Positions 24,924 to 36,702 of a stretch of DNA of 64,000 bases are shown one piece after another; positions within the stretch are counted from its first letter, which is position 1; the number at the start of each line of letters is the position of its first letter. A program made the position numbers and the translations under genes. The notes beneath the pieces were generated by a model that was given only the letters and a program-made list of their open reading frames with translations, was not told where the DNA came from and searched no databases. The stretch comes from Mycolicibacterium diernhoferi (GTDB taxonomy: Bacteria > Actinomycetota > Actinomycetes > Mycobacteriales > Mycobacteriaceae), in the NCBI RefSeq assembly GCF_019456655.1, contig NZ_CP080332.1, positions 5,518,001 to 5,582,000 of the forward strand. Reading direction: 5' to 3'.

Positions 24924-27900
24924 GTGACAGCGGAGACCGGCCAGGCGATTCCTCCTCAGTACCTTCTCTCCCCGGCAGCCGCTCCGCCACGGACCCTGGT
25001 CGACGTCCTCTACGAGACGGCCAACCGCTACCCGGACGCCCCCGCCATCGACGACGGTGAGGTGCAGCTCACCTATGCCGAGCTGATCAGCGACATCGAG
25101 GACAGCGTGGAATGGCTGGCGGCCCGCGGTATCGGCCGCGGTGACCGGATCGGCATCCGGATGGCCTCGGGCAGCTACGCCCTCTACACCGCGATCCTGG
25201 CCACCCTGGCCACCGGCGCCGCCTACGTCCCGGTCGACGCCGACGACCCCGAGGAACGCGCCGCACTCGTCTTCACCGAGGCCGAGGTGGTGGCGGTCAT
25301 CACCGACCAGGGCCTGGTGCGCGGCCCGGGTTCCTCCCGCGGCTGGCGGGCGGCGGCGCCACTCACCCGCGACGACGCCTGGATCATCTTCACCTCCGGA
25401 TCGACCGGCACCCCCAAGGGTGTCGCGGTGACGCACCGCAGCGCCGCGGCCTTCGTCGACGCCGAGGCGCGGATGTTCCTGCAGTCCTCGCCCATCGGCC
25501 CCGGCGACCGGGTGCTGGCCGGGCTGTCGGTGGCCTTCGACGCCTCCTGCGAGGAGATGTGGCTGGCCTGGCGCAACGGCGCCTGCCTGGTCCCGGCACC
25601 GCGGTCGCTGGTGCGCAGCGGGATGGACCTGGGCCCGTGGCTGGTGTCCCGGGACATCACCGTCGTCTCGACCGTCCCCACGCTGGCCGCGCTGTGGCCG
25701 GCCGAGGCACTGGAGTCGGTGCGGTTGCTGATCTTCGGCGGTGAGGCCTGCCCGCCCGAACTCGCCGAACGGCTCGCGGTGGACGGGCGCGAGGTGTGGA
25801 ACACCTACGGCCCGACCGAGGCGACCGTGGTGGCCTGCGCGGCCCGCCTGGACGGGTTCGGAAGGCTGGAGCGCAGCGACCCGGGTCATGAGCCGCGCCC
25901 GGTCAGCATCGGGCTGCCGCTGCCGGGCTGGGACCTCGTCGTGGTGGACCGCGCCGGTCTGCCGGTGGGCCCGGGCGAGGTCGGTGAGCTGGTGATCGGC
26001 GGCGTCGGGCTGGCCCGCTACCTGGACCCGGAGAAGGACGCCGAGAAGTACGCGGCCATGCCGTCGCTGGGCTGGGAGCGCGCCTACCGCAGCGGCGACC
26101 TGGTGCGGCTGGAGGCCGACGGCCTGTACTTCCAGGGCCGCGCCGACGACCAGGTCAAGGTCGGTGGGCGGCGTATCGAACTCGGCGAGGTGGACAACGC
26201 GCTGGTGCACCTACCCGGGGTGAGCGCCGGGGCGGCCGCCGTGCGCCGCACCGCCAGCGGCACGCCCCTGCTGGTCGGCTACATCGCAAGCGCCGACCCG
26301 GAATTCGACCTCGCCAAGGCCCGCGCCGAGCTTTCCGAGGCGCTGCCCGCCGCGCTGGTCCCCCGCCTGGTGCTGCTCGACGAACTGCCCACCCGGACCT
26401 CGGGGAAGGTGGATCGCAACGCGCTGCCGTGGCCGGTCGACCCCGCCGCCGGAGGCGCGGGGGCCGAGGAGCCCGAACTGGGCGGCACCATGGGCTGGCT
26501 GGCCGGACTGTGGCGCGACGTGCTGGCCGCGGTGGTGGACGGACCGGAAGCCGACTTCTTCGCCCTCGGCGGCGGATCGCTGTCGGCCGCGCAACTGGTC
26601 GCGGCGGTGCGCGCCCGTTATCCGCAGGTCACCGTCGCCGATCTGTACGACCACCCGCGGCTGGGTTCGCTGGCCGGCTATCTCGACGAGCTGGCCCCGC
26701 CCCCGGAGGTGGTGCGCCGCGACGTCACACCCACACCGGTTCGCACCCAATTGGCACAGGTGGCGCTGTCGGTGCCGCTGGCCACGCTGACCGGCCTGCA
26801 GTGGGTGATCTGGCTGGCCATCCTGAACAACCTCGCCGCCGCCGTGGACCTGGTGCCCTGGGCGGCAGGCGTGAACTGGTGGTGGATCATCGCCGGGTTC
26901 CTGGTCTTCATCACCCCGCCCGGACGGATGGGCATCGCCGTACTGGGTGCGCGCACCCTGCTCTCCGGGTTGCAGCCGGGCACTTACCGGCGCGGCGGAT
27001 CCGAGCACCTGCGGGTCTGGTTCGCCGAGCGGCTGGCCGAGGCCAGCGGGGCGGAGAATCAGGCCGGGGCCCCGTGGCTGGTGTATTACGCCCGGGCCCT
27101 TGGTAATTCGATCGGCAAGGGGGTCGACCTGCACTCCGCACCGCCGGTCACCGGGATGCTCACCCTGGGCCATCGGTGCTCGATCGAACCCGAGGTCGAC
27201 CTGACCGGGCACTGGATCGACGGGGACCTGTTCCACGTCGGCCCGATCACCATCGGCAACGACTCCACCATCGGTGCCCGCACCACCCTGCTGCCGGGGG
27301 CGTCGATCGGCAAGAACGCCGATGTCGCCGCCGGCTCCGGCGTGATCGGCAAGGTCAAGAACGGGCAGTACTGGAAGGGCTCGCCGGCGGCGAAATCCGG
27401 TAAGGCGCGCCACCCTTGGCCGCAGGAGCGGCCCGCCCGCGCCCCGGTGTGGGTCGCCGTCTTCGGCATCACCTCGATGCTGCTGGGCGCACTGCCGCTG
27501 GCCGGGCTCGCCGCCGGGCTGGCCGTGCTCGGCTGGGCGATCCGCGACACCGCCACCGGAGCCGACGCGATCGTCCCGGCCCTGATGTGGACCCCGGTGG
27601 GAGCACTGGTCGCCGTGGCCGTGTACGCCGCACTGACCGTGATCGGGGTACGCCTGCTGGCCATCGGACTGACCGAGGGCTATCACCCGGTGCGCAGCCG
27701 CGTCGGGTGGCAACTGTGGGCCACCGAACGGCTGATGGACGCCGCGCGCAACTATCTGTTCCCGCTCTACGCCAGCCTGCTCACCCCGTGGTGGCTCCGC
27801 CTGCTCGGCGCCAAAGTGGGCAAGGACACCGAGATTTCGACCGCGCTGCTCACCCCGAAGTTCACCGAGATCTGCGACGGCGCTTTCCTGGCCGACGACA

Positions 27901-28850
27901 CCATGGTGGCCTCCTACGAGCTCGGCGGCGGCTGGATCCACGTCGCGAAGGCCACCATCGGCAAACGAGCGTTCCTGGGCAACTCGGGTATCACCCAGCC
28001 CGGCCGCCGGGTGCCCGACGACGGGCTGGTGGCCGTGCTGTCGGCCACCCCGCACAAGGCCAAGGCGGGTTCCTCCTGGCTGGGCAGCCCGCCGATCCGG
28101 TTGCGCCGCAAGCCCACCGCCGCGGACACGATCCGCACCTTCCACCCGTCCACCGAGCTGCGGGTGATGCGCGCGGTCGTCGAGACCTGCCGGCTCATCC
28201 CGGTCATCGTCACCTTCGCGATCGGCGTCGCGGTGCTGGGCGCGCTGCACCACCTGGCCGGCGCCATCGGCTACGGCTGGACCGCGCTGGCCGGCGGTTT
28301 GGTGCTGCTGGCCGCCGGGGCTGTCGCGGGTGCGATTGCGGTGGCGGCGAAATGGATTGTGGTGGGCCGCATCGAGGCGGTCGAACACCCGCTGTGGTCA
28401 TCGTTCGTGTGGCGCAACGAGGTGTCGGACACCTTCGTCGAGACGGTGGCCGCGCCGTGGTTCGCCCGGGCCGCCAGCGGCACCCCGGTGATGAACATCT
28501 GGCTGCGTGGTCTGGGTGCCCGGATCGGCCGCGGGGTCTGGTGCGAGACCTACTGGCTGCCCGAGGCGGATCTGATCACCCTCGGCGACGGCAGCACCGT
28601 GAACCGGGGTTGTGTGGTGCAGACCCACCTGTTCCACGACCGGATCATGCGGATGGACACCGTGATCCTCGACGAGGGCGCCACCCTGGGCCCGCACTGC
28701 GTGGCGTTGCCGGCCTCGCGCATCGGCGCGGGCGCCACCGTCGGCCCCGCCTCGTTGGTGATGCGCGGTGACGAGGTGCCGCCGTGGACCCGCTGGCAGG
28801 GCAACCCGATCGCACCATGGACGGTCAAGCGCAAGAAGCACGACCGATGA
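24924..28850 (+). CDS. Pls/PosA-type NRPS: adenylation, carrier and membrane/hexapeptide terminal domains
   Basis: A 1308-residue membrane NRPS. The adenylation domain occupies roughly residues 20-510: IIFTSGSTGTPKG (about 153), FDASCEEMW (about 203), NTYGPTEATVV, YRSGDLVRLEADG and RTSGKVDRNALP. A carrier domain follows with LGGGSLSAAQL, where Ser552 takes phosphopantetheine. No ordinary condensation or thioesterase domain follows. Instead there are about six transmembrane helices in pairs (near 620-680, 845-900 and 1095-1150) alternating with three hexapeptide-like beta-helix segments (for example ITIGNDSTIGARTTLLPGAS). This is the layout of the Pls/PosA family that includes epsilon-poly-lysine synthetase. 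The hand-read specificity pocket D-A-E-S-I-G-T-V-V plus Lys suggests a basic amino acid. It is ATGA-coupled to the next gene. Confidence 0.88.
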   Translation: MTAETGQAIPPQYLLSPAAAPPRTLVDVLYETANRYPDAPAIDDGEVQLTYAELISDIEDSVEWLAARGIGRGDRIGIRMASGSYALYTAILATLATGAAYVPVDADDPEERAALVFTEAEVVAVITDQGLVRGPGSSRGWRAAAPLTRDDAWIIFTSGSTGTPKGVAVTHRSAAAFVDAEARMFLQSSPIGPGDRVLAGLSVAFDASCEEMWLAWRNGACLVPAPRSLVRSGMDLGPWLVSRDITVVSTVPTLAALWPAEALESVRLLIFGGEACPPELAERLAVDGREVWNTYGPTEATVVACAARLDGFGRLERSDPGHEPRPVSIGLPLPGWDLVVVDRAGLPVGPGEVGELVIGGVGLARYLDPEKDAEKYAAMPSLGWERAYRSGDLVRLEADGLYFQGRADDQVKVGGRRIELGEVDNALVHLPGVSAGAAAVRRTASGTPLLVGYIASADPEFDLAKARAELSEALPAALVPRLVLLDELPTRTSGKVDRNALPWPVDPAAGGAGAEEPELGGTMGWLAGLWRDVLAAVVDGPEADFFALGGGSLSAAQLVAAVRARYPQVTVADLYDHPRLGSLAGYLDELAPPPEVVRRDVTPTPVRTQLAQVALSVPLATLTGLQWVIWLAILNNLAAAVDLVPWAAGVNWWWIIAGFLVFITPPGRMGIAVLGARTLLSGLQPGTYRRGGSEHLRVWFAERLAEASGAENQAGAPWLVYYARALGNSIGKGVDLHSAPPVTGMLTLGHRCSIEPEVDLTGHWIDGDLFHVGPITIGNDSTIGARTTLLPGASIGKNADVAAGSGVIGKVKNGQYWKGSPAAKSGKARHPWPQERPARAPVWVAVFGITSMLLGALPLAGLAAGLAVLGWAIRDTATGADAIVPALMWTPVGALVAVAVYAALTVIGVRLLAIGLTEGYHPVRSRVGWQLWATERLMDAARNYLFPLYASLLTPWWLRLLGAKVGKDTEISTALLTPKFTEICDGAFLADDTMVASYELGGGWIHVAKATIGKRAFLGNSGITQPGRRVPDDGLVAVLSATPHKAKAGSSWLGSPPIRLRRKPTAADTIRTFHPSTELRVMRAVVETCRLIPVIVTFAIGVAVLGALHHLAGAIGYGWTALAGGLVLLAAGAVAGAIAVAAKWIVVGRIEAVEHPLWSSFVWRNEVSDTFVETVAAPWFARAASGTPVMNIWLRGLGARIGRGVWCETYWLPEADLITLGDGSTVNRGCVVQTHLFHDRIMRMDTVILDEGATLGPHCVALPASRIGAGATVGPASLVMRGDEVPPWTRWQGNPIAPWTVKRKKHDR

Positions 28851-30187
28851 GGCCGGCCAAGAAGCCGGCCCGCAAGTCCGCCCACCAGCCCCCGGTGATC
28901 GACCCCTACCTGCCCCGCAACGGCAACTTCGGCTACCGGGTATCCCGCTACGAACTCGACCTCGAATACAAGGTGGCGATCAACCGGCTCGCCGGATCGG
29001 TCACCATCACCGCGGTGACGCTGGCCGCGCTGCGCACCTTCAGCCTGGACCTCTCCGATGCCATGTCGGTGTCGAAGGTGACGGTGAACGGTCGGCGCCC
29101 CAACCAGTTCCGCTGTTCGGCGGACAAGCTGCACATCACCCTCGGCGCGGCCCTGCCCGCCGGCGCCGCGATGACCATCGCGATCCGCTACGGCGGGACA
29201 CCCCGTCCGCTGCGCACCGTCTGGGGAGAGGTCGGCTTCGAGGAACTGTCCAACGGCGCGCTGGTCGCCGGGCAGCCCAACGGGGCGGCCTCCTGGTTTC
29301 CCTGCGACGATCACCCGGCGGCCAAGGCCAGCTACCAGATCCGGATCAGCACCGACAGCCCGTATTACGCACTGGCCAACGGCGAACTGGTCTCCAAGCA
29401 GGTGCGGGCCAGCCACACCGTCTGGGTCTACGAGCAGGCCGAGCCCACCTCCACCTACCTCATCACGCTGCAGATCGGGGAGTACGAACGGCTCCGCCTG
29501 CAGAAGAGCCCGGTGCCGATGTACGCCGTGCTGCCGGACCGGTTGCGCGGCGACTTCGAACACGACTTCGCCCGCCAGCCCCAGATGATGAAGCTGTTCA
29601 CCCGGCGGTTCGGGCCGTACCCGCTGGCCACCGGGTACACCGTCGTCGTCACCGATGACGACCTGGAGATACCGCTTGAGGCCCAAGGGCTTTCGATCTT
29701 CGGCGCCAATCACTGCGACGGCAGCGGCTCGGCGGAACGGCTGATCGCCCACGAACTGGCACACCAGTGGTTCGGCAACTCGGTGACGGTGCGGCGCTGG
29801 CGCGACATCTGGCTGCACGAGGGGTTCGCCTGCTACGCGGAATGGCTGTGGTCCGAGGAGTCCGGCGGGCCCAGCGCCGAGGAGCGGGCACGCAGTTACC
29901 ACCGCAGGCTCTCCGATTCCCCGCAGGATCTGCTGCTGACCGATCCCGGCCCGGCCGACATGTTCGACGACCGGGTGTACAAGCGCGGCGCGCTCACCCT
30001 GCACGCCCTGCGCGGAGTCATCGGTGACGATAATTTCTTTGCGCTGCTTCAGGATTGGACCGCCCGCTACCGGCACAGCACCGCCGTCACCGATGACTTC
30101 ACCGGTCTGGCCGCCAATCACACCGACGTCTCGCTGCGGTCGCTGTGGGACCGCTGGCTGTACTCCGAGGACGTACCGGACCTGTGA
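28847..30187 (+). CDS. M1 family aminopeptidase
   Basis: A 446-residue zinc metallopeptidase. The zinc motif HELAH is at about residues 301-305 and is followed after 18 residues by the Glu of WLHEGFACYAEW. The usual exopeptidase GAMEN motif is replaced by PLEAQGLSIFG, similar to the LETQ-type form of small actinobacterial M1 enzymes. The beta-sandwich N-domain is present, but the large C-terminal helical domain of PepN is lacking. No signal peptide; the first 13 residues are very basic. The start overlaps the NRPS stop (ATGA) and the stop overlaps the flippase start (GTGA), so its role is probably tied to the NRPS product. Confidence 0.9.
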   Translation: MRPAKKPARKSAHQPPVIDPYLPRNGNFGYRVSRYELDLEYKVAINRLAGSVTITAVTLAALRTFSLDLSDAMSVSKVTVNGRRPNQFRCSADKLHITLGAALPAGAAMTIAIRYGGTPRPLRTVWGEVGFEELSNGALVAGQPNGAASWFPCDDHPAAKASYQIRISTDSPYYALANGELVSKQVRASHTVWVYEQAEPTSTYLITLQIGEYERLRLQKSPVPMYAVLPDRLRGDFEHDFARQPQMMKLFTRRFGPYPLATGYTVVVTDDDLEIPLEAQGLSIFGANHCDGSGSAERLIAHELAHQWFGNSVTVRRWRDIWLHEGFACYAEWLWSEESGGPSAEERARSYHRRLSDSPQDLLLTDPGPADMFDDRVYKRGALTLHALRGVIGDDNFFALLQDWTARYRHSTAVTDDFTGLAANHTDVSLRSLWDRWLYSEDVPDL

Positions 30188-31440
30188 CCGACGCCAGCGC
30201 GGCAGTACCGGCCCGCGGCCCGGTGACGCGGGGCAGCGTCACCCGGGTCGGGATCGCCACCGCGTGCTCGGCGCTGTGCGGCTACGCCGTGCTCTATCTG
30301 GCCGCCCGCGATCTGGAACCCGCCGGATTCTCCCTGTTCGGGGTGTTCTGGGGGGCGTTCGGACTGGTCAGCGGCGCGGCGAACGGCCTGCTCCAGGAAT
30401 CCACCCGCGAGGTCCGGGCGCTGCGCGGCCAGATCGTAACCGGGCCCGAACGCACCCGCCCGATGCGGGTCGCGGCCGTCGTCGGCGTGGCGGCGGCCGG
30501 TGTGATCGTGCTCAGCTCGCCGCTGTGGTCGGCGCAGGTGTTCGGGGAGTCCCGGTGGCTCAGTGTGGTGCTGCTGAGCATCGGCCTGGCCGGATTCTGC
30601 CTGCACGCAACGCTGCTCGGCATGCTGGCCGGGGTCGACCGGTGGACGCAGTACGGATCGTTGATGGTGACCGACGCCGCGATCCGGGTGGCGGTCGCCG
30701 CTGCGGCCTTCGTGCTGGGCTGGGGACTGGCCGGGTTCCTGTGGGCGACCGTCGCCGGATGTCTGGCCTGGCTGATCCTGCTGGTGGCCTCGCCAACGGC
30801 CCGGGCAGCGGCCCGGTTGGCGACCGCCGGTTCGCCGCGCACCTTCCTGACCGGGACGCTGCACTCGGTGGCCGCCGCCGGTGCCAGCGCCGTCCTGGTG
30901 ATGGGTTTCCCGGTGCTGCTCAAGGCCACCTCCGGCGAGCTCGGGGCGGCCGGCGGTGTGGTCATCCTGGCGGTGACACTGACCCGGGCGCCGCTGCTGG
31001 TGCCGCTGACGGCCATGCAGGGCAACCTGATCGCACATTTCGTGGATCAGCGGCACCGCCGTTTGCGCGCACTGGTCGCGCCCGCGGGCCTGGTCGTTGC
31101 AGTCGGGGCGGTCGGGGTGCCGGCGGCCTGGCTGGCCGGACCGTGGCTGCTGCGCACCGCGTTCGGAGCGGACTATCAAGCCCCCGGCGTGCTGCTGGCC
31201 TGGTTCACCGCCGGGGCGGTGTCCCTCGCGCTGCTCACCCTGACCGGCGCCGCCACCGTGGCCGCCGCGCTGCACCGGGCGTACGCGGCGGGCTGGGTGG
31301 GCGCCACGCTGGCCGCGGTCGCCCTGCTGCTGCTCCCGCTGGACCTGGAGACCAGGACCGTCGTCGCGCTGCTGTGCGGTCCGATGGTGGGCATCGCGGT
31401 GCACCTGTACGCGCTCAGCGTCCACCGAGCAGGTCGGTGA
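30184..31440 (+). CDS. Polytopic membrane protein, polysaccharide-flippase-like (Rv3630-like)
   Basis: A 418-residue protein with about 12 hydrophobic segments arranged like MOP-superfamily exporters (Wzx/MurJ relatives). Conserved-looking parts are YLAARDLEPAGFSLFGVFWG near the N-terminus and LKATSGELGAAGGVVILAVTLTRAP around residue 245. Equivalent in place and type to Rv3630. The GTG at 30184 makes a GTGA overlap with the peptidase stop; upstream starts fall inside the peptidase. It may move a lipid-linked or peptide product of the operon across the membrane (inference). The 3' end overlaps the convergent TetR gene by 26 bp. Confidence 0.8.
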   Translation: MTDASAAVPARGPVTRGSVTRVGIATACSALCGYAVLYLAARDLEPAGFSLFGVFWGAFGLVSGAANGLLQESTREVRALRGQIVTGPERTRPMRVAAVVGVAAAGVIVLSSPLWSAQVFGESRWLSVVLLSIGLAGFCLHATLLGMLAGVDRWTQYGSLMVTDAAIRVAVAAAAFVLGWGLAGFLWATVAGCLAWLILLVASPTARAAARLATAGSPRTFLTGTLHSVAAAGASAVLVMGFPVLLKATSGELGAAGGVVILAVTLTRAPLLVPLTAMQGNLIAHFVDQRHRRLRALVAPAGLVVAVGAVGVPAAWLAGPWLLRTAFGADYQAPGVLLAWFTAGAVSLALLTLTGAATVAAALHRAYAAGWVGATLAAVALLLLPLDLETRTVVALLCGPMVGIAVHLYALSVHRAGR

Positions 31441-31999
31441 GCAACGCGATCCGCTTGTCCTCCAGATCGGGGGTCGGCAGCACCCCGCGCAGCAGCGCGG
31501 CGCCGTCGAAGGCGTTGGTCAACAACGCCCGGACGACGGGCAGCAGGTCGGGGTCGAGGTTGTCGATGCCGGGCACGCCCGCGGCGACCTCGTCGATCTT
31601 GGCCGCGTACTCGGTGAGCACGTGCTGCAGGGTGGCACGCAGCGCAGCGTCGGTGCGGGCCGCCACCATCAGTTCGTAGAGCACGGCGTTGGTGTCGTTG
31701 CCGGTGACGTCCCGCAGGATCGTCAGTGCCGATTCCAGCGCGGGCTTGTCCGCGGGGATCTCGGCGACCCGTTTCCCGAACAGGTCGAGCTGGCGGCGCA
31801 ACACCTCATGGCCGGTGGCGGCCATGAAGTCCCCCATCGTCGGGTAGTGCCGGAACAGCGCGCCGACGGACAGGCCGGCCCGTTTTGCGATGATCGCCGC
31901 CGACGCACGGGCGTAACCGATTTCGATGATCGTCTCGATGCCGGCGTCGAGCAGCCGGGCGACGGTCTCCGCCCGGCGCTGCTGTTGGGTGCGGGCCAT
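31415..31999 (-). CDS. TetR family transcriptional regulator
   Basis: A 194-residue regulator. Helix-turn-helix: ASAAIIAKRAGLSVGALFRHYPTMGDFM at about residues 31-58. It starts MARTQQQRRAETVARLLDAG, a standard TetR N-terminus. Only 2 bp separate it from the end of the upstream amidohydrolase gene, so both are one operon and the regulator probably acts on the dyad at 33794-33815 in front of that operon. The C-terminal domain gives no ligand clue. Confidence 0.9.
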   Translation of the reverse strand: MARTQQQRRAETVARLLDAGIETIIEIGYARASAAIIAKRAGLSVGALFRHYPTMGDFMAATGHEVLRRQLDLFGKRVAEIPADKPALESALTILRDVTGNDTNAVLYELMVAARTDAALRATLQHVLTEYAAKIDEVAAGVPGIDNLDPDLLPVVRALLTNAFDGAALLRGVLPTPDLEDKRIALLTDLLGGR

Positions 32000-32001
32000 C
32001 G

Positions 32002-33777
32002 CTAGACCGTGGCGGTTGCCGCAGTACCGGCCCGCAGGTACCGGCCGCTGCGGACCGTGGCGCCGTAGCCGTCACGGAATCTGCCGCGGGCGAACACCAC
32101 CTGGCCGTTGACACCGGTGGCGATGACGGTGTCGTCGTTGCGGTTCACCATGCGGCTCAGTCCGCCGTAGAACGGCACCACCGCCTCGTGATAGGCGTTG
32201 ACCGAATCATCGAGGGCGCCCACGTCGATCACCACGAAGTCGGCCCGGTCCCCGCGGCGCAGGGTGCCGGCGTCGAGTCCGAACCAGTCGGCGACCTCCG
32301 CGGTCAGCCGGTGCACGGCGCGCTGCGGGGTGAGGAACGGCCGCCCGGCCTCATCCGCATCGCGGACCCGCTTGAGCAGGCGCAGCGCGTAGTTGTAGAA
32401 CGCCATGTTGCGCAGGTGCGCGCCGGCATCGGAGAAGCCCATGTGCACCGAGGGATCCGCGGCCAGCCGGTCGAGCACGTCGGGGCGGTGGTTGGCCACG
32501 ATCGTGGTCCAGCGGACATTGCGTTCGCCGTTGTCCACCAGCACATCCAGGAAGGCGTCCAGCGGATGGATGCCCCGCTCGTCGGCGATCTGGCCGAAGC
32601 TCTTGCCGATCAACGACCCGTCCGGGCATTCGACGATGGTGGCGTCGTGGAAATCACGGTGCCACAAGGTGGGTCCGAGCTTGCGCCGGTCGAACGACCG
32701 GCGGAACCGGCGCCGGTATTCGGGGTCGGCGAGCAGCGTGTTGCGCTCCAGCTGATCACGCAGGTGCAGCGCCGCGGTACCGGCGCCGAACTCCTCGAAG
32801 ACCGGCAGATCGATTCCGTCGGAATACAATTCGAACGGCACCGGGAGATGCTGGAACCGCACCTGGGCGCCGATCAGCTTGTTCAACACCCGGGTGCCGA
32901 TGCCGATGACCCGCGCGGCGCCCGGTGAGGACTTGGCATCGGCCGACACCAGCAGGCTCATCTTCACACCGGGCCGGCGGCCGAACAGGCCGCTGCTCTC
33001 CAGGAAGAAGTTCAACGCTTCCTGCGCGCGGGCCACGTTGGGTGCGCTCTGCAACATGCGGCCGCGCCGGCGCAGCACCTTGATCAACCGGCGGCGTTCG
33101 CGCCAGGTGGCGAAGGTGGACGGCAGCGCGCGGGACCGGAACCGGTCACCGTCGAGTTTGTCGATGGCGGCATCCATCCCGGACATGCCGAGCATCCCGG
33201 CGTCCAGGGCCTGCTCGAGGCGCTGGGCCATGGTCTCCAGCTCGGCGTCGGTCGGGACGACACCGCGGGTGGTGGCGCGGTCCAGGCCGAGCACCGAGGC
33301 GCGCAGGTCGGAATGCCCGAGCAGCGAGGCGATGTTCGGGCCGAGCGGCAGTGCGTCGATGGCGGCCACGTACTCGGCGGGGTTGTGCCAGGTCTTGTGT
33401 TCGGTCAGCGCGCCGTGCACGTACTCGCGCGGTACCGCCTCGACCCGGCTGAACAGATCGGCGGCGTCCTCGGTGTCGGCGTACACCGTGGACAGTGAGC
33501 ACATGCCGAGCAGCACGGTGGTGACGCCGTGGCGCACCGATTCGCGCAGGCCCGGGTCGAGGAGCACCTCGGCGTCGTAGTGCGTGTGCACGTCGATGAA
33601 ACCGGGGACCACCCATTTGCCCGCGGCGTCGATCACCTCGGGGCACCCGGTCTCGTCCAGTGGTGCGGCGGAGACCTCGGCGACGATGCCGTCGCGGATG
33701 CCGAGGGAGCGGGTCAGCGGCGGGCGTCCGGTGCCGTCGAACCACAGGCCGTCGCGGATGATCACGTCGTAGGACAT
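32002..33777 (-). CDS. Amidohydrolase, N-acyl-D-amino-acid deacylase type
   Basis: A 591-residue metal-dependent hydrolase. GFIDVHTHYDAEVLLDPGL near residues 59-77 contains the HxH metal motif, and GVTTVLLGMCSLS holds the Cys ligand typical of D-aminoacylases. GHSDLRASVLG and SDAGAHLRNMAFYNY (catalytic Asp and His) fit the same family, and DFVVIDVGALDD belongs to the small beta domain. Related mycobacterial proteins act on N-acyl-D-amino acids or other cyclic/amide bonds; the substrate is not known. ATG at 33777 follows TAGGGT by six bases, so it is leaderless, with a TetR-type operator just upstream. Confidence 0.88.
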   Translation of the reverse strand: MSYDVIIRDGLWFDGTGRPPLTRSLGIRDGIVAEVSAAPLDETGCPEVIDAAGKWVVPGFIDVHTHYDAEVLLDPGLRESVRHGVTTVLLGMCSLSTVYADTEDAADLFSRVEAVPREYVHGALTEHKTWHNPAEYVAAIDALPLGPNIASLLGHSDLRASVLGLDRATTRGVVPTDAELETMAQRLEQALDAGMLGMSGMDAAIDKLDGDRFRSRALPSTFATWRERRRLIKVLRRRGRMLQSAPNVARAQEALNFFLESSGLFGRRPGVKMSLLVSADAKSSPGAARVIGIGTRVLNKLIGAQVRFQHLPVPFELYSDGIDLPVFEEFGAGTAALHLRDQLERNTLLADPEYRRRFRRSFDRRKLGPTLWHRDFHDATIVECPDGSLIGKSFGQIADERGIHPLDAFLDVLVDNGERNVRWTTIVANHRPDVLDRLAADPSVHMGFSDAGAHLRNMAFYNYALRLLKRVRDADEAGRPFLTPQRAVHRLTAEVADWFGLDAGTLRRGDRADFVVIDVGALDDSVNAYHEAVVPFYGGLSRMVNRNDDTVIATGVNGQVVFARGRFRDGYGATVRSGRYLRAGTAATATV

Positions 33778-33783
33778 CTCGCG

Positions 33784-33815
33784 ACCCTAGGTTAGATAGC
33801 GATTGCTCACTATCT
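33784..33815 (-). promoter_or_regulatory. Amidohydrolase-tetR promoter with TetR-type operator
   Basis: On the minus strand TAGGGT (33789-33784) is a -10 box six bases before the ATG at 33777. Directly upstream, 33794-33815 is a 22-bp dyad with arms AGATAGCGA and TCACTATCT around four central bases, matching at 8 of 9 positions. It covers the -35 region, so binding would block transcription. The likely binder is the TetR protein of the same operon. Confidence 0.7.
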
Positions 33816-33858
33816 TTTTGCCGAATTTCGTCCACAGCACGGGCACCACATGTCTGCC

Positions 33859-33864
33859 TAGACT
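33859..33864 (+). promoter_or_regulatory. galE -10 box TAGACT
   Basis: TAGACT matches TANNNT and would start transcription near 33871, giving a leader of about 27 nt. AAAGGA at 33885-33890 is a ribosome binding site eight bases before the ATG at 33898 and favours that start over an in-frame TTG at 33865. Confidence 0.55.
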
Positions 33865-33897
33865 TTGCCCCCGAAGGACCCGAACAAAGGACAACAC

Positions 33898-34881
33898 ATG
33901 ACCTGGCTCGTCACCGGTGGCGCCGGATACATCGGTTCGCACGTCGTGCGTGCGCTGACCGCATCCGGTACCGACGTCGTCGTGATCGACGACCTGTCGA
34001 CGGGGCTGGCCCACTTCGTGCCCGCTCGCGTCGAGCTGGTGACCGCAAACCTGCTGGACTACGACACGGTCCGGGCCACCCTGGCCGACCACCGGGTGAC
34101 CGGGGTGATCCACGTCGCCGGCTACAAGTACGCCGGCGAGTCGGTGAAGTACCCGCTGCACACCTATCAGCAGAACGTCACCGCCATGGCGACCCTGCTG
34201 CAGGCGATGGCCGATACCGGCGTCGACCAGATCGTCTTCTCCAGCAGCGCGGCCACCTACGGAACCCCCGACGTCGAGCTCGTCGACGAGCTGACCCCCA
34301 CCGCGCCCGAGTCCCCGTACGGGGAGAGCAAGCTGATCGGGGAATGGCTGCTGCGCGACGTCGCCCGGTCCCGCGACCTGCGGCACACCAGCCTGCGGTA
34401 CTTCAACGTGGTCGGCTCGGGATCGGTGGACCTGTTCGACCGCAGCCCGCACAACCTGTTCCCCAAGGTCCTCGACATGCTGTTCAACGGGAGTGTCCCG
34501 CAGATCAACGGCGGGGATTACGACACACCCGACGGCACCTGTGTGCGCGATTATGTGCACGTCTCGGACCTGGCCTCCGCCCATGTGGCGGCCGCCCGCC
34601 GGATGGAGGCCGGCAAGGACCTGGAGCCCGTGTACAACCTGGGCAGCGGATCGGGCACCTCGGTGCGCGAGATCATGACGACCATCCGCGAGGTCACCGG
34701 GATCGACTTCGAGCCGAAGGTGAACCCGCGCCGGCCCGGCGATCCGGCCCGCATCGTGGCAGCCGGCGATCTGGCCGCCCGCGACCTGGACTGGCAGATG
34801 CGCCATTCGCTGACCGAGATGGTCGCCTCGGCCTGGGCCGCCCGCCAGGAGGTCGGGCAGGACTATCCGACCGTGAGCTGA
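33898..34881 (+). CDS. galE: UDP-glucose 4-epimerase
   Basis: Interconverts UDP-glucose and UDP-galactose, feeding galactan and other cell-wall sugars. The 327-residue extended SDR starts MTWLVTGGAGYIGSH (GxxGxxG NAD loop). It has VIHVAGYKYAGESVKYPL, SSSAATYGTP (catalytic Ser/Thr region), SPYGESKLIGEWLLRD (Tyr-x-x-x-Lys), LRYFNVVGS and DGTCVRDYVHVSDLA, all GalE hallmarks. Equivalent of Rv3634c. Unlike the minus-strand M. tuberculosis label, here it runs on the plus strand ahead of the GT-C-like gene. Confidence 0.95.
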   Translation: MTWLVTGGAGYIGSHVVRALTASGTDVVVIDDLSTGLAHFVPARVELVTANLLDYDTVRATLADHRVTGVIHVAGYKYAGESVKYPLHTYQQNVTAMATLLQAMADTGVDQIVFSSSAATYGTPDVELVDELTPTAPESPYGESKLIGEWLLRDVARSRDLRHTSLRYFNVVGSGSVDLFDRSPHNLFPKVLDMLFNGSVPQINGGDYDTPDGTCVRDYVHVSDLASAHVAAARRMEAGKDLEPVYNLGSGSGTSVREIMTTIREVTGIDFEPKVNPRRPGDPARIVAAGDLAARDLDWQMRHSLTEMVASAWAARQEVGQDYPTVS

Positions 34882-34914: not shown

Positions 34915-36702
34915 ATGAAATGGAGTCCGGGCGAGCGGAGCGACGGGAGATGGATCTGCCGCACTGCCGTCGCGCTGATCGCGGTGCAGCTGCTGATCCG
35001 TTCCGTGCTGGCCTTCGGCGGCGACTTCTACTGGGATGACCTGATCCTGGTCGGCCGCGCCGGCACCCAGGACCTGCTCTCGGCTCAGTACTTGTTCGAC
35101 GACCACGACGGGCACGTCATGCCCGGGGCGTTCCTGTTGGCCGGCGCCATCACCCTGGCCGCCCCGCTGCAGTGGTTCGGCCCGGCGCTCAGCCTGATCG
35201 TGCTGCAGGCGCTGGCCTCGGCGGCGTTGCTGCGGGCGTTGTACGTGATCTTGGGCTGGCGGCCGGCACTGCTGGTCCCGTTGACCTTCGCGCTGTTCAC
35301 GCCGCTGACCGTGCCGGGTTTCGCCTGGTGGGCGGCCGGCCTGAACTCGCTGCCGATGCAGGCCGCGCTGGCCTGGGTGTGTGCCGACGCGATCCTGTTG
35401 GTGCGCACCGGCAATCGGCGATACCTCGTGACCGGCGTCCTGGTCTACTTCGGCGCGTTGCTGTTCTTCGAGAAGTCCGCGGTGATCCCGTTCGTCGCGT
35501 TCGCGGTGACCGCGCTGCTGGCCTGGGTGACCCGCGCGTCGGTGGCGCAGGTGTGGCGTCGTGGCCTCCGCCTGTGGGTGGGATTGCTCGCGGTGACGGT
35601 CGCATGGATCGGCGTGTACCTGATCGTCGTCGACCAGAAGCGCTGGTCGCTGGACCTTCCGATGACCTGGGACCTGCTGTGGCGCTCGATCACGCACGGC
35701 ATCGTCCCGGGGTTGGCCGGCGGTCCGTGGGAGTGGCAGCGCTGGGCGCCGGCGTCGCCGTGGGCCACCCCGCCGGTGACGGTGATGGCGCTGGGCTGGC
35801 TGGTGCTGGCCGGCACGCTGGCGGTGTCGCTGTACCGCAAGGAGCGCATCGGCCCGGTCTGGCTGGCCGCCGTGGGGTACGCGGTGGCGTGCCAGGTGCC
35901 GATCTATCTGATGCGGTCATCGCAGTTCACCGCGCTGGAACTGGCTCAGACGCTGCGTTATCTGCCCGATCTGGTGGTGGTGCTGGCGCTGCTGGCCGCG
36001 GTTGCCTTCCGCGCCCCGAACCGGGAGTCCTCGCGTCGCCTGGACGCCTCCCCCGCCCGGTCGGCGGTGGTCATCACGGTGGCGGTGGCGTTCGTGGCCA
36101 GCAGCCTGTATTCGACGGTGACGTTTCTGCGGGCGTGGCAGGACAGCCCGGTGCCGGAGTATCTGGCCAACGCCCGCGCCGGACTCGCCGCGGTCGATCC
36201 GCTGGCGGCCCCGCTGCTGGATCAGGAGGTGGACCCGATGATCATGCAGCGTGTGGCGGCCCCGGAGAACCTGGCCAGCCACATGTTCGCGCTGCTGCCG
36301 GGACCCGGATTCAGCAGCGCCACAACGGAACTGCGCGTCTTCGACTCGACGGGCCGGTTGCGCGACGGATTGGTCACCTGGATCCGGACCATCACCCCGG
36401 GGCCCGAGCCGGGCTGCGGCTACCTGGTGCAGACCGATGGCGACGAGGTCGTCATGAAACTGGACGGGCCGCTGCTGCCGGCGGACTGGACGGCCGAGAT
36501 CAACTACCTGGCCAACAGCGAGGGGTCGCTGACCATGTCGCTGAGCGAGGGCCCTGCGGTGAAGGTGCCGGTGCATCCGGGCCTGAACCGGGTGTTCGTC
36601 CGGCTGCCCGGGGCCGGTGACGCGATCCGGGTGAGCGCGAACACCGCCGCGTTGGCGGTGTGCATCGCGTCTGGGCCGATCGGGTTCGTCGCGCCTCGTT
36701 GA
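34915..36702 (+). CDS. Polytopic membrane protein, GT-C glycosyltransferase-like (Rv3635-like)
   Basis: A 595-residue membrane protein with 9-11 predicted helices in the first 400 residues and a C-terminal extracytoplasmic beta-rich domain of about 190 residues. The first outer loop contains GGDFYWDDLILVGRAG; paired acidic residues at that place are a mark of GT-C enzymes that use polyprenyl-phosphate sugars. It follows galE after 33 bp, like Rv3634c-Rv3635, and may transfer a sugar to a cell-wall polymer; donor and acceptor are unknown. TACAGT at 34901-34906 lies eight bases before the ATG, so an extra leaderless promoter is likely. Confidence 0.82.
   Translation: MKWSPGERSDGRWICRTAVALIAVQLLIRSVLAFGGDFYWDDLILVGRAGTQDLLSAQYLFDDHDGHVMPGAFLLAGAITLAAPLQWFGPALSLIVLQALASAALLRALYVILGWRPALLVPLTFALFTPLTVPGFAWWAAGLNSLPMQAALAWVCADAILLVRTGNRRYLVTGVLVYFGALLFFEKSAVIPFVAFAVTALLAWVTRASVAQVWRRGLRLWVGLLAVTVAWIGVYLIVVDQKRWSLDLPMTWDLLWRSITHGIVPGLAGGPWEWQRWAPASPWATPPVTVMALGWLVLAGTLAVSLYRKERIGPVWLAAVGYAVACQVPIYLMRSSQFTALELAQTLRYLPDLVVVLALLAAVAFRAPNRESSRRLDASPARSAVVITVAVAFVASSLYSTVTFLRAWQDSPVPEYLANARAGLAAVDPLAAPLLDQEVDPMIMQRVAAPENLASHMFALLPGPGFSSATTELRVFDSTGRLRDGLVTWIRTITPGPEPGCGYLVQTDGDEVVMKLDGPLLPADWTAEINYLANSEGSLTMSLSEGPAVKVPVHPGLNRVFVRLPGAGDAIRVSANTAALAVCIASGPIGFVAPR

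What the first reader, a model, noticed from the sequence alone, without database searches (positions are those of the whole stretch)
24924..31440. Coupled operon of a Pls/PosA-type NRPS, M1 aminopeptidase and flippase: candidate for an undescribed cell-surface amino-acid polymer or conjugate pathway
Seen: three genes joined by ATGA and GTGA overlaps. The first encodes adenylation and carrier domains followed by paired membrane helices and hexapeptide segments, without condensation or thioesterase domains. Known: the Pls family with this layout makes homo-oligomers such as epsilon-poly-lysine. Inference: the peptidase trims or recycles, and the flippase exports, the product. The Rv3630-like flippase has no settled function in mycobacteria.
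Basis: partly seen in the sequence, partly recalled or inferred. Interest (0 to 1): 0.82.

Follow-up and report, generated by a model that had tools for sequence, protein, structure and literature searches.

The report
Mycobacterial poly-lysine operon with flippase
This mycobacterial operon looks like the known enzyme pair that makes and breaks down the antimicrobial polymer epsilon-poly-lysine, joined to a membrane flippase that, from its distribution across genomes, more likely belongs to a cell-wall sugar-decoration pathway and may be one of that pathway's missing parts.

Summary
The NRPS (24924-28850) is a full-length Pls: lysine-type adenylation domain, carrier domain and Pls/PosA terminal domain with six membrane segments. 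The M1 peptidase starts at an ATGA overlap, the flippase at a GTGA overlap. "Undescribed" does not hold for the first two genes: pls-pldII, a coupled epsilon-poly-L-lysine synthetase/degrading-enzyme operon, is published for Streptomyces albulus, and a Corynebacterium variabile homologue makes the polymer when expressed. Here the pair occurs together in 106 of 148 sampled genus genomes. The third gene behaves differently. It is in 145 of 148 (one copy broken), including 39 of 41 without the pair. Outside the genus it is in 39 of 141 genomes; 36 of these carry a ppgS-type gene (lipid-linked GalNAc for arabinogalactan), while 97 have pls-pldII with neither. Where the pair lies elsewhere in the genus, the flippase stays with ppgS (22 of 22). 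It is therefore a candidate for the unidentified flippase of arabinogalactan galactosamine decoration rather than a polylysine exporter. Against this, the window genome lacks ppgS, and in all 37 such genus genomes with pls and flippase the flippase stays beside the peptidase. Structure prediction never ran (server busy). Product and transport are inferred.

The parts
24924..28850 (+). pls-like NRPS, 1308 aa: epsilon-poly-L-lysine synthetase candidate
   Evidence: TIGR02353 748.7 bits, TIGR01733 325.1 bits; A domain 612 bits to S. albulus Pls 7wew
24972..26441 (+). adenylation domain, about residues 17-506; pocket residues D206 A207 E210 and, by spacing, S249 I270 G272 T294 V302 V303
   Evidence: pocket motif blocks aligned with S. 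albulus Pls
26496..26684 (+). carrier (T) domain, residues 525-587, with GGGS serine
   Evidence: PF00550 46.1 bits, sequence
26754..28811 (+). Pls/PosA terminal polymerisation domain, residues 611-1296, six membrane segments and hexapeptide-like regions
   Evidence: TIGR02353, hydropathy, weak hexapeptide-transferase matches in PDB, best E 9.5e-5
28847..28850 (+). ATGA stop/start overlap pls-pldII
   Evidence: sequence; overlap of this kind in 79 of 85 loci
28847..30187 (+). M1 metallopeptidase, PldII-type polymer-degrading enzyme candidate, 446 aa
   Evidence: PF01433/PF17900, HELAH-X18-E, next to the NRPS in all 106 genus genomes that have the NRPS
30184..30187 (+). GTGA stop/start overlap pldII-flippase
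   Evidence: sequence; overlap of this kind in 50 of 62 loci
30184..31440 (+). Rv3630-type polytopic membrane protein, putative flippase (418 aa from GTG 30184; ORF open from 30145)
33865..34881 (+). galE-like epimerase, not the galE1 type of most relatives; neighbour of the envelope locus
   Evidence: TIGR01179 325.5 bits; 29-34% match to the opposite-strand galE1-type gene of other genomes
34915..36702 (+). Rv3635-like (name recalled) multi-pass membrane protein, possibly a GT-C glycosyltransferase; conserved neighbour
   Evidence: invariant FYWDDL in A2; no family or PDB match

Best explanation
The first two genes are a pls-pldII operon. The NRPS activates L-lysine, loads it on its carrier domain, and its membrane-bound terminal domain joins lysines through the epsilon-amine into epsilon-poly-L-lysine, which Pls itself is thought to release outside. 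The M1 aminopeptidase trims or destroys the polymer for self-protection or recycling. The third gene is an envelope flippase inherited with a neighbouring sugar-decoration locus (flippase-ppgS-DUF2304-galE1-Rv3635). In most relatives it probably flips polyprenyl-phosphate-GalNAc for galactosamine decoration of arabinogalactan. Its coupling to pldII is an old arrangement, not proof that it carries polylysine. In the window genome no ppgS was found, so here the flippase must serve another lipid-linked sugar, be a relic, or have been taken over by the polymer pathway. Shown: gene order, domains, pocket identity, co-occurrence. Inferred: substrate, product, transport.
For: NRPS: TIGR02353 and A-domain matches. 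Pocket motif FDASCEE with Ala at position 2 and Glu at position 3, as reported for lysine-type synthetases (PMC10522769), in 83 of 84 aligned loci; one did not cover the block (some genomes twice). Published pls-pldII operon with 4-bp overlap (PMC4361855, passage) and active C. variabile homologue in an operon with a peptidase (PMC8117764). In the genus all 106 genomes with the NRPS have the peptidase, with 36-141 bp between matches in 105 and a split NRPS frame in one. Outside it, 131 of 131 NRPS genomes have the peptidase, 116 of them within 7 kb on the same strand. Flippase: outside the genus (141 genomes) it is present with ppgS in 36, alone in 3, ppgS alone in 1 (G236, 81% complete), neither in 101; no association with the NRPS (p 0.14) or the peptidase (p 0.12). 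Flippase and ppgS occur in exactly the same 7 of 30 genera and are present or absent together within g9 (5 with, 4 without) and g11 (8 with, 1 without). In the genus the flippase lies upstream of ppgS on the same strand within 2.5 kb in 102 of 107 genomes with ppgS. Where pls-pldII lies elsewhere (23 by position, 22 after correcting G008, note 85) the flippase is still beside ppgS in all. eLife PMC9671496 (passages) states that the factor flipping the lipid-linked sugar is unidentified.
Against: The peptidase-flippase adjacency is itself deep: 31 of 34 genomes outside the genus that have both, 11 of them with the NRPS elsewhere, which suggests a real link. In 37 of 37 genus genomes with pls and flippase but no ppgS the flippase remains beside the peptidase, and the window genome is one of them. 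Three genomes outside the genus, all in g3, have the flippase without ppgS (G277, G266, G230), and one genus genome has the flippase with neither partner (G072). At class level the ppgS link fails: 12 genomes outside the family have ppgS-like genes (41-56% identity) without the flippase, and one (G486) has a weak flippase match without ppgS. Fisher values are not corrected for phylogeny. Absence means no match among the candidates that the search scored (for the flippase at most 12 per genome and 7, often fewer than all candidates) or, for ppgS, none at E 1e-50. 'ppgS' is named from PF00535 plus its DUF2304 neighbour and context, not by alignment with Rv3631. The window peptidase has no evident signal or anchor, while PldII is reported outside the membrane. 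The C. variabile pls gave no polymer in its own host nor in C. glutamicum. No fold could be obtained for the flippase.
Confidence: 0.66

Rival explanations
1. One reading: the flippase exports or surface-displays the amino-acid polymer, so all three genes form one polymer pathway.
For: Stop/start overlaps recur (50 of 62 loci); peptidase-flippase adjacency in 31 of 34 genomes outside the genus that have both; 37 of 37 ppgS-less genus genomes with pls and flippase keep the flippase beside the peptidase.
Against: 97 of 141 genomes outside the genus have NRPS and peptidase but neither flippase nor ppgS; 39 genus genomes have the flippase without the peptidase, 38 of them with ppgS (one of the 39, G115, has broken copies). 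Pls is described as synthesising and excreting its product itself (PMC8117764).
Confidence: 0.17
2. One self-protection island: polycation synthesis (pls), polycation destruction (pldII) and wall decoration with positively charged galactosamine (flippase, ppgS, DUF2304) that would repel the polycation, as D-alanylation does elsewhere (analogy recalled).
For: Gene order pls-pldII-flippase-ppgS-DUF2304 complete in L154, L157 and L163, three genera; PldII repression lowers tolerance to the polymer in S. albulus (PMC9223678, passages).
Against: 97 of 141 genomes outside the genus have pls-pldII without ppgS and flippase; 38 genus genomes keep flippase and ppgS without the peptidase. No data here on polycation tolerance.
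Confidence: 0.2
3. The NRPS makes another product: short oligomers, another diamino-acid polymer, or lysine attached to an envelope component.
For: The same family of synthetases also makes poly-ornithine, poly-diaminobutyrate and poly-diaminopropionate (PMC10522769); no product from mycobacteria appeared in the listings searched.
Against: Pocket residues identical to S. albulus Pls at the nine mapped positions; peptidase context as in pls operons, unlike the other synthetases (PMC8117764).
Confidence: 0.12

Closest known systems
pls-pldII of Streptomyces albulus (epsilon-poly-L-lysine synthetase and degrading enzyme)
   Same: Domain order A-T-terminal domain with six membrane segments, identical pocket residues at the mapped positions, peptidase gene directly downstream with a 4-bp overlap.
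   Different: Third, overlapping flippase gene; the window peptidase lacks an evident export signal; host is a mycobacterium; product not shown.
pls-peptidase operon of Corynebacterium variabile
   Same: Pls in an operon with a peptidase; made epsilon-poly-L-lysine when the pls gene was expressed in S. coelicolor.
   Different: No flippase described in the text read (parts 1-2 of 4); no polymer detected in its own host.
PosA of Acinetobacter baumannii (delta-poly-L-ornithine synthetase)
   Same: Same kind of synthetase with the same terminal-domain layout.
   Different: Met at pocket position 2 (ornithine), single-gene operon.
Rv3630-Rv3631(ppgS)-Rv3632-Rv3634c locus, arabinogalactan galactosamine pathway
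   Same: In most relatives the third gene lies directly before a ppgS-type GT2 and a DUF2304 gene, with galE1-type and Rv3635-like genes next.
   Different: The window genome has no ppgS match at E 1e-50; TetR, amidohydrolase and another galE stand in its place. Locus names are recalled or from papers, not from alignment with the M. tuberculosis proteins.

Membership tests
Pls/PosA synthetases (TIGR02353) | Terminal domain scoring above the curated cut-off | tested here: met
   748.7 bits against 423.1, positions 2-695 of 695
Pls/PosA synthetases (TIGR02353) | A and T domains, no condensation or thioesterase domain, six membrane helices | tested here: met
   (helices by hydropathy only)
epsilon-poly-L-lysine synthetase (Pls) | Lysine-type pocket code | tested here: met
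   Motif blocks aligned with S. albulus Pls 7wew; the residue mapping is by spacing to PosA and PheA numbering, the latter partly recalled
epsilon-poly-L-lysine synthetase (Pls) | Makes epsilon-poly-L-lysine | not testable with these tools
   needs expression and mass spectrometry
PldII | Overlapping gene directly downstream of pls | tested here: met
   ATGA overlap, overlap of this kind in 79 of 85 loci
PldII | Sequence homology to S. albulus PldII | not tested
   No PldII sequence was fetched; that PldII is an M1 peptidase is recalled, the passages read call it an aminopeptidase and zinc metallopeptidase
PldII | Located outside the membrane | tested here: inconclusive
   No clear signal or anchor in the window protein by hydropathy
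MOP/MATE-type flippase | Fold | not tested
   Structure prediction was busy at every attempt; published match of Rv3630 to MATE
Arabinogalactan galactosamine locus | Flippase adjacent to ppgS in this genome | tested here: not met
   No ppgS match in G000 at E 1e-50; met in 102 of 107 genus genomes with ppgS
Arabinogalactan galactosamine locus | Flippase co-occurs with ppgS across genera of the family | tested here: met
   Same 7 of 30 genera; 36/3/1/101 table
Arabinogalactan galactosamine locus | Flippase co-occurs with ppgS-like genes outside the family | tested here: not met
   12 genomes with a ppgS-like gene and no flippase; G486 the reverse

The most novel reading that the evidence does not exclude
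The Rv3630-type protein is the missing flippase of arabinogalactan galactosamine decoration, and its ancient coupling to pls-pldII marks a polycation self-protection island: make the polycation, degrade it, and charge the wall positively so that it does not bind. In ppgS-less lineages such as the window genome the flippase would have been retained for a replacement lipid-linked sugar.
Probability: 0.2. Interest if true: 0.75.

Novelty: new variant of a known kind. Interest (0 to 1): 0.5.

Why it matters
It gives a concrete expected product, epsilon-poly-L-lysine, for an NRPS present in 106 of 148 sampled genomes of the genus. It also points to a specific candidate for a step of cell-wall galactosamine decoration that a 2022 paper calls unidentified. 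Both can be tested directly in environmental strains by deletion, wall analysis and expression.

Tried and rejected
Rejected: 'undescribed polymer pathway' for the first two genes, because of the pls-pldII literature. Rejected as proof of a joint function: the gene overlaps alone, since the flippase occurs widely without the other two. Considered and not adopted: that the flippase is unrelated to the polymer genes; the 31 of 34 peptidase-flippase adjacency outside the genus speaks against dismissing it.

Led nowhere: PDB profile searches for the flippase and the Rv3635-like protein (no match). The paper search for Rv3635 found none, and that for galactosamine, arabinogalactan and cationic (listing only) gave nothing used here. 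TIGR02353 matches 147 of 148 genus genomes at E 0.001, but only 106 over the cut-off; only those were counted. Dropped before the counts: two weak flippase matches outside the genus (G153, G222, E about 1e-4). Kept in the genus flippase count of 145: one broken copy (G115), copies with one in-frame stop (G111, G045, G074) and pieces at contig ends (such as G086, G112, G118, G139). Literature: mycobacterial epsilon-polylysine was sought (2 papers; 20 of 29 listed; 7 listed), listings only; no title or abstract start there describes it, but these papers were not read for it, apart from passages of PMC4035055 (Nocardia, which calls the homologue Pls) and parts of PMC10522769.
Full report
Check of the observation. 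The three ORFs lie as described. pls (24924-28850) ends in TGA overlapping the ATG at 28847; the peptidase (28847-30187) ends in TGA overlapping a GTG at 30184 (sequence). The NRPS matches TIGR02353 end to end (748.7 bits, cut-off 423.1) plus an amino-acid adenylation domain and a carrier domain. Pfam lists no condensation or thioesterase domain. Hydropathy shows six membrane segments in three pairs in the terminal region, as described for Pls (PMC8117764, parts 1-2 of 4) and for PosA (PMC10522769: outline, results parts 2-3, discussion, passages and section 13).

What the first two genes are. The A domain matches S. albulus Pls (7wew) at 612 bits. The window's pocket blocks are FDASCEEMW, VVSTVPTLAALW, LLIFGGEACPP and NTYGPTEATVVAC. 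By spacing they give D-A-E-S-I-G-T-V-V, and the aligned S. albulus residues are the same at these nine positions; the mapping to Stachelhaus numbering is partly recalled. PMC10522769 reports Ala at position 2 for lysine synthetases, Met for ornithine, Phe for the two shorter diamino acids, and Glu at position 3 conserved. FDASCEE is present in 83 of the 84 loci aligned; one did not cover the block, and some genomes are represented twice. In S. albulus pldII lies next to pls with a 4-bp overlap in one operon (PMC4361855, passages). PldII is called an aminopeptidase needed for self-protection (PMC9223678, passages). The C. variabile Pls, also in an operon with a peptidase, gave epsilon-poly-L-lysine when expressed in S. 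coelicolor, though none was detected in C. variabile itself or in C. glutamicum. I conclude that 24924-30187 is a pls-pldII operon. The step from sequence to product is inferred. I did not compare the peptidase with the S. albulus PldII sequence itself.

Co-conservation in the genus. 148 genomes, the window's own included, were searched. The NRPS over the cut-off is in 106, the peptidase as a strong match in 107 (the extra one, G126, has only an NRPS tail of 79.9 bits), and the flippase in 145, one of them broken (G115). All 106 NRPS genomes have the peptidase next to it: 36-141 bp between matches in 105, and a split NRPS frame in G045. The flippase follows the peptidase within 500 bp in 83 of the 107 peptidase genomes. 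It is present in 39 of the 41 genomes with neither partner, G115 with its remnants counted among them; the two others, G005 and G052, are 84% and 87% complete. Among 105 genomes with all three genes, 82 have the flippase adjacent and 23 do not. One of the 23, G008, is a contig break with the peptidase's end beside the flippase (note), leaving 22. In all of these the flippase lies 37-1786 bp upstream of ppgS on the same strand. In six of the 22 flippase and pls-pldII are on different contigs (G007, G010, G030, G047, G113, G120), so their distance is unknown. On one contig the far group has about 175-230 kb between flippase and peptidase (one more, G132, only if its chromosome is circular). In seven genomes the peptidase lies 15-18 kb downstream of the flippase; in the two of these that I mapped (L054, L055) pls directly follows the Rv3635-like gene, about 9 kb from the flippase.

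The flippase locus. In L046 and L060 the flippase is followed by a GT2 enzyme and a DUF2304 protein (Pfam), in L054 likewise, then by galE1-type and Rv3635-like genes. I call the GT2 gene ppgS from this context; I did not align it with Rv3631, and the names Rv3630 and Rv3635 for the neighbours are recalled. Rv3631 (ppgS) and Rv3632 are reported to make the galactosamine substituent of arabinogalactan, with the epimerase Rv3634c near them (PMC5389812, passages; PMC3756022, passage). [quoted passage not shown] A ppgS query at E 1e-50 found 107 of 148 genus genomes, not the window genome; the flippase lies upstream within 2.5 kb in 102 of the 107, with four exceptions on different contigs and one (G105) at 2.7 kb. 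Genus classes: all three 68, flippase and pls without ppgS 37, flippase and ppgS without pls 39, flippase alone 1 (G072), pls alone 1 (G015), none 2.

Outside the genus (141 genomes of 30 genera, same family, parsed): NRPS 131, peptidase 132, flippase 39, ppgS 37. Flippase with ppgS 36, flippase only 3, ppgS only 1, neither 101 (Fisher 7e-29, not corrected for descent). Flippase against NRPS p 0.14, against peptidase p 0.12. The genera with flippase and with ppgS are the same 7 of 30, and within g9 (5 with, 4 without) and g11 (8 with, 1 without) they come and go together; in g3, 3 of 10 genomes have the flippase without ppgS. NRPS and peptidase are on one strand within 300 bp in 80 of 131, within 7 kb in 36 more, and apart in 15. 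Against a simple reading, peptidase and flippase are adjacent in 31 of 34 genomes that have both, 11 of them with the NRPS elsewhere. In 20 mapped stretches from outside the genus the order pls-pldII-flippase-ppgS-DUF2304 is complete in L154, L157 and L163; five of the 20 show no ppgS near the flippase (L145, L146, L150, L161, L162). Between flippase and ppgS L154 and L157 hold an opposite-strand ORF that looks like a GT2 enzyme by eye (not scanned). Class level (246 genomes): flippase in 16, all but one (G486, weak) in the family; ppgS-like genes at E 1e-40 in 23, 12 of them outside the family and without the flippase. So in this sample the flippase-ppgS link holds only inside the family. The searches scored a limited number of candidates per genome, so absences are not proof.

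Named relatives. One search kept the best 80 of 296 confirmed loci, many of them unnamed species or metagenome bins. Of these 80 around the flippase, 42 hold pls and the peptidase within the fetched stretch, among them M. frederiksbergense (84% flippase identity, among the nearest relatives of the window found), M. peregrinum, M. tusciae and M. porcinum. I searched 24 of the 38 genomes without pls in the stretch, and 10 with it as controls: 10 of the 24 have pls elsewhere (for example M. gordonae, M. szulgai, M. asiaticum), 14 have none at E 1e-50 (for example M. interjectum, M. kyorinense, M. genavense, M. uberis), and the 10 controls all matched.

Mechanism. Most likely Pls polymerises lysine at the membrane and PldII limits the polymer; the flippase belongs by descent to lipid-linked aminosugar transport. 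How it functions in the window genome, which has no ppgS match, is open: another lipid-linked sugar made with the local galE and the Rv3635-like protein (invariant FYWDDL, as in GT-C enzymes, motif meaning recalled), a relic, or use by the polymer pathway. The coupling peptidase-flippase-ppgS invites the idea that wall galactosamine protects producers against their own polycation. This is untested.

Verdict. The extra value lies in the distribution of pls-pldII across mycobacteria and in the flippase candidate for a known gap.

Noticed in passing
window 31415-34881: Between the flippase and the Rv3635-like gene the window genome carries TetR, amidohydrolase and a different galE where most mapped relatives have ppgS, DUF2304 and galE1. 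In L082, L096, L112, L121, L126, L132 and L141 this other galE follows the flippase directly on the same strand.
   Followed up: partly
window 34915-36702: Rv3635-like membrane protein with an invariant FYWDDL motif and no match in Pfam, NCBIfam or PDB; looks like a GT-C glycosyltransferase.
   Followed up: partly
L053 7399-9702 and L052 8036-9023 (G115, 3.27 Mb genome): pls, peptidase and flippase all appear as broken remnants while ppgS matches without stops. G089 (3.2 Mb) has a 53-residue peptidase-like piece.
   Followed up: no
L054 and L055: pls-pldII lies directly behind the Rv3635-like gene on the same strand, a second arrangement near the same locus.
   Followed up: no
G164, G193, G203, G209, G222, G225, G238, G250, G281: Further, more distant NRPS_term homologues beside the main one (547-573 bits), perhaps other diamino-acid polymer synthetases.
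   Followed up: no
L062 7737-11285 (G064): A second flippase paralogue and a partial third copy far from the main locus.
   Followed up: no
control genomes: Among the 14 control genomes one is over the TIGR02353 cut-off, at E 1e-50, names it as Corynebacterium glutamicum, the species in which the C. variabile gene gave no polymer.
   Followed up: no
L098: A record titled as a Bifidobacterium breve metagenome bin carries a mycobacterial-type pls-pldII-flippase locus, probably a binning or labelling error.
   Followed up: no
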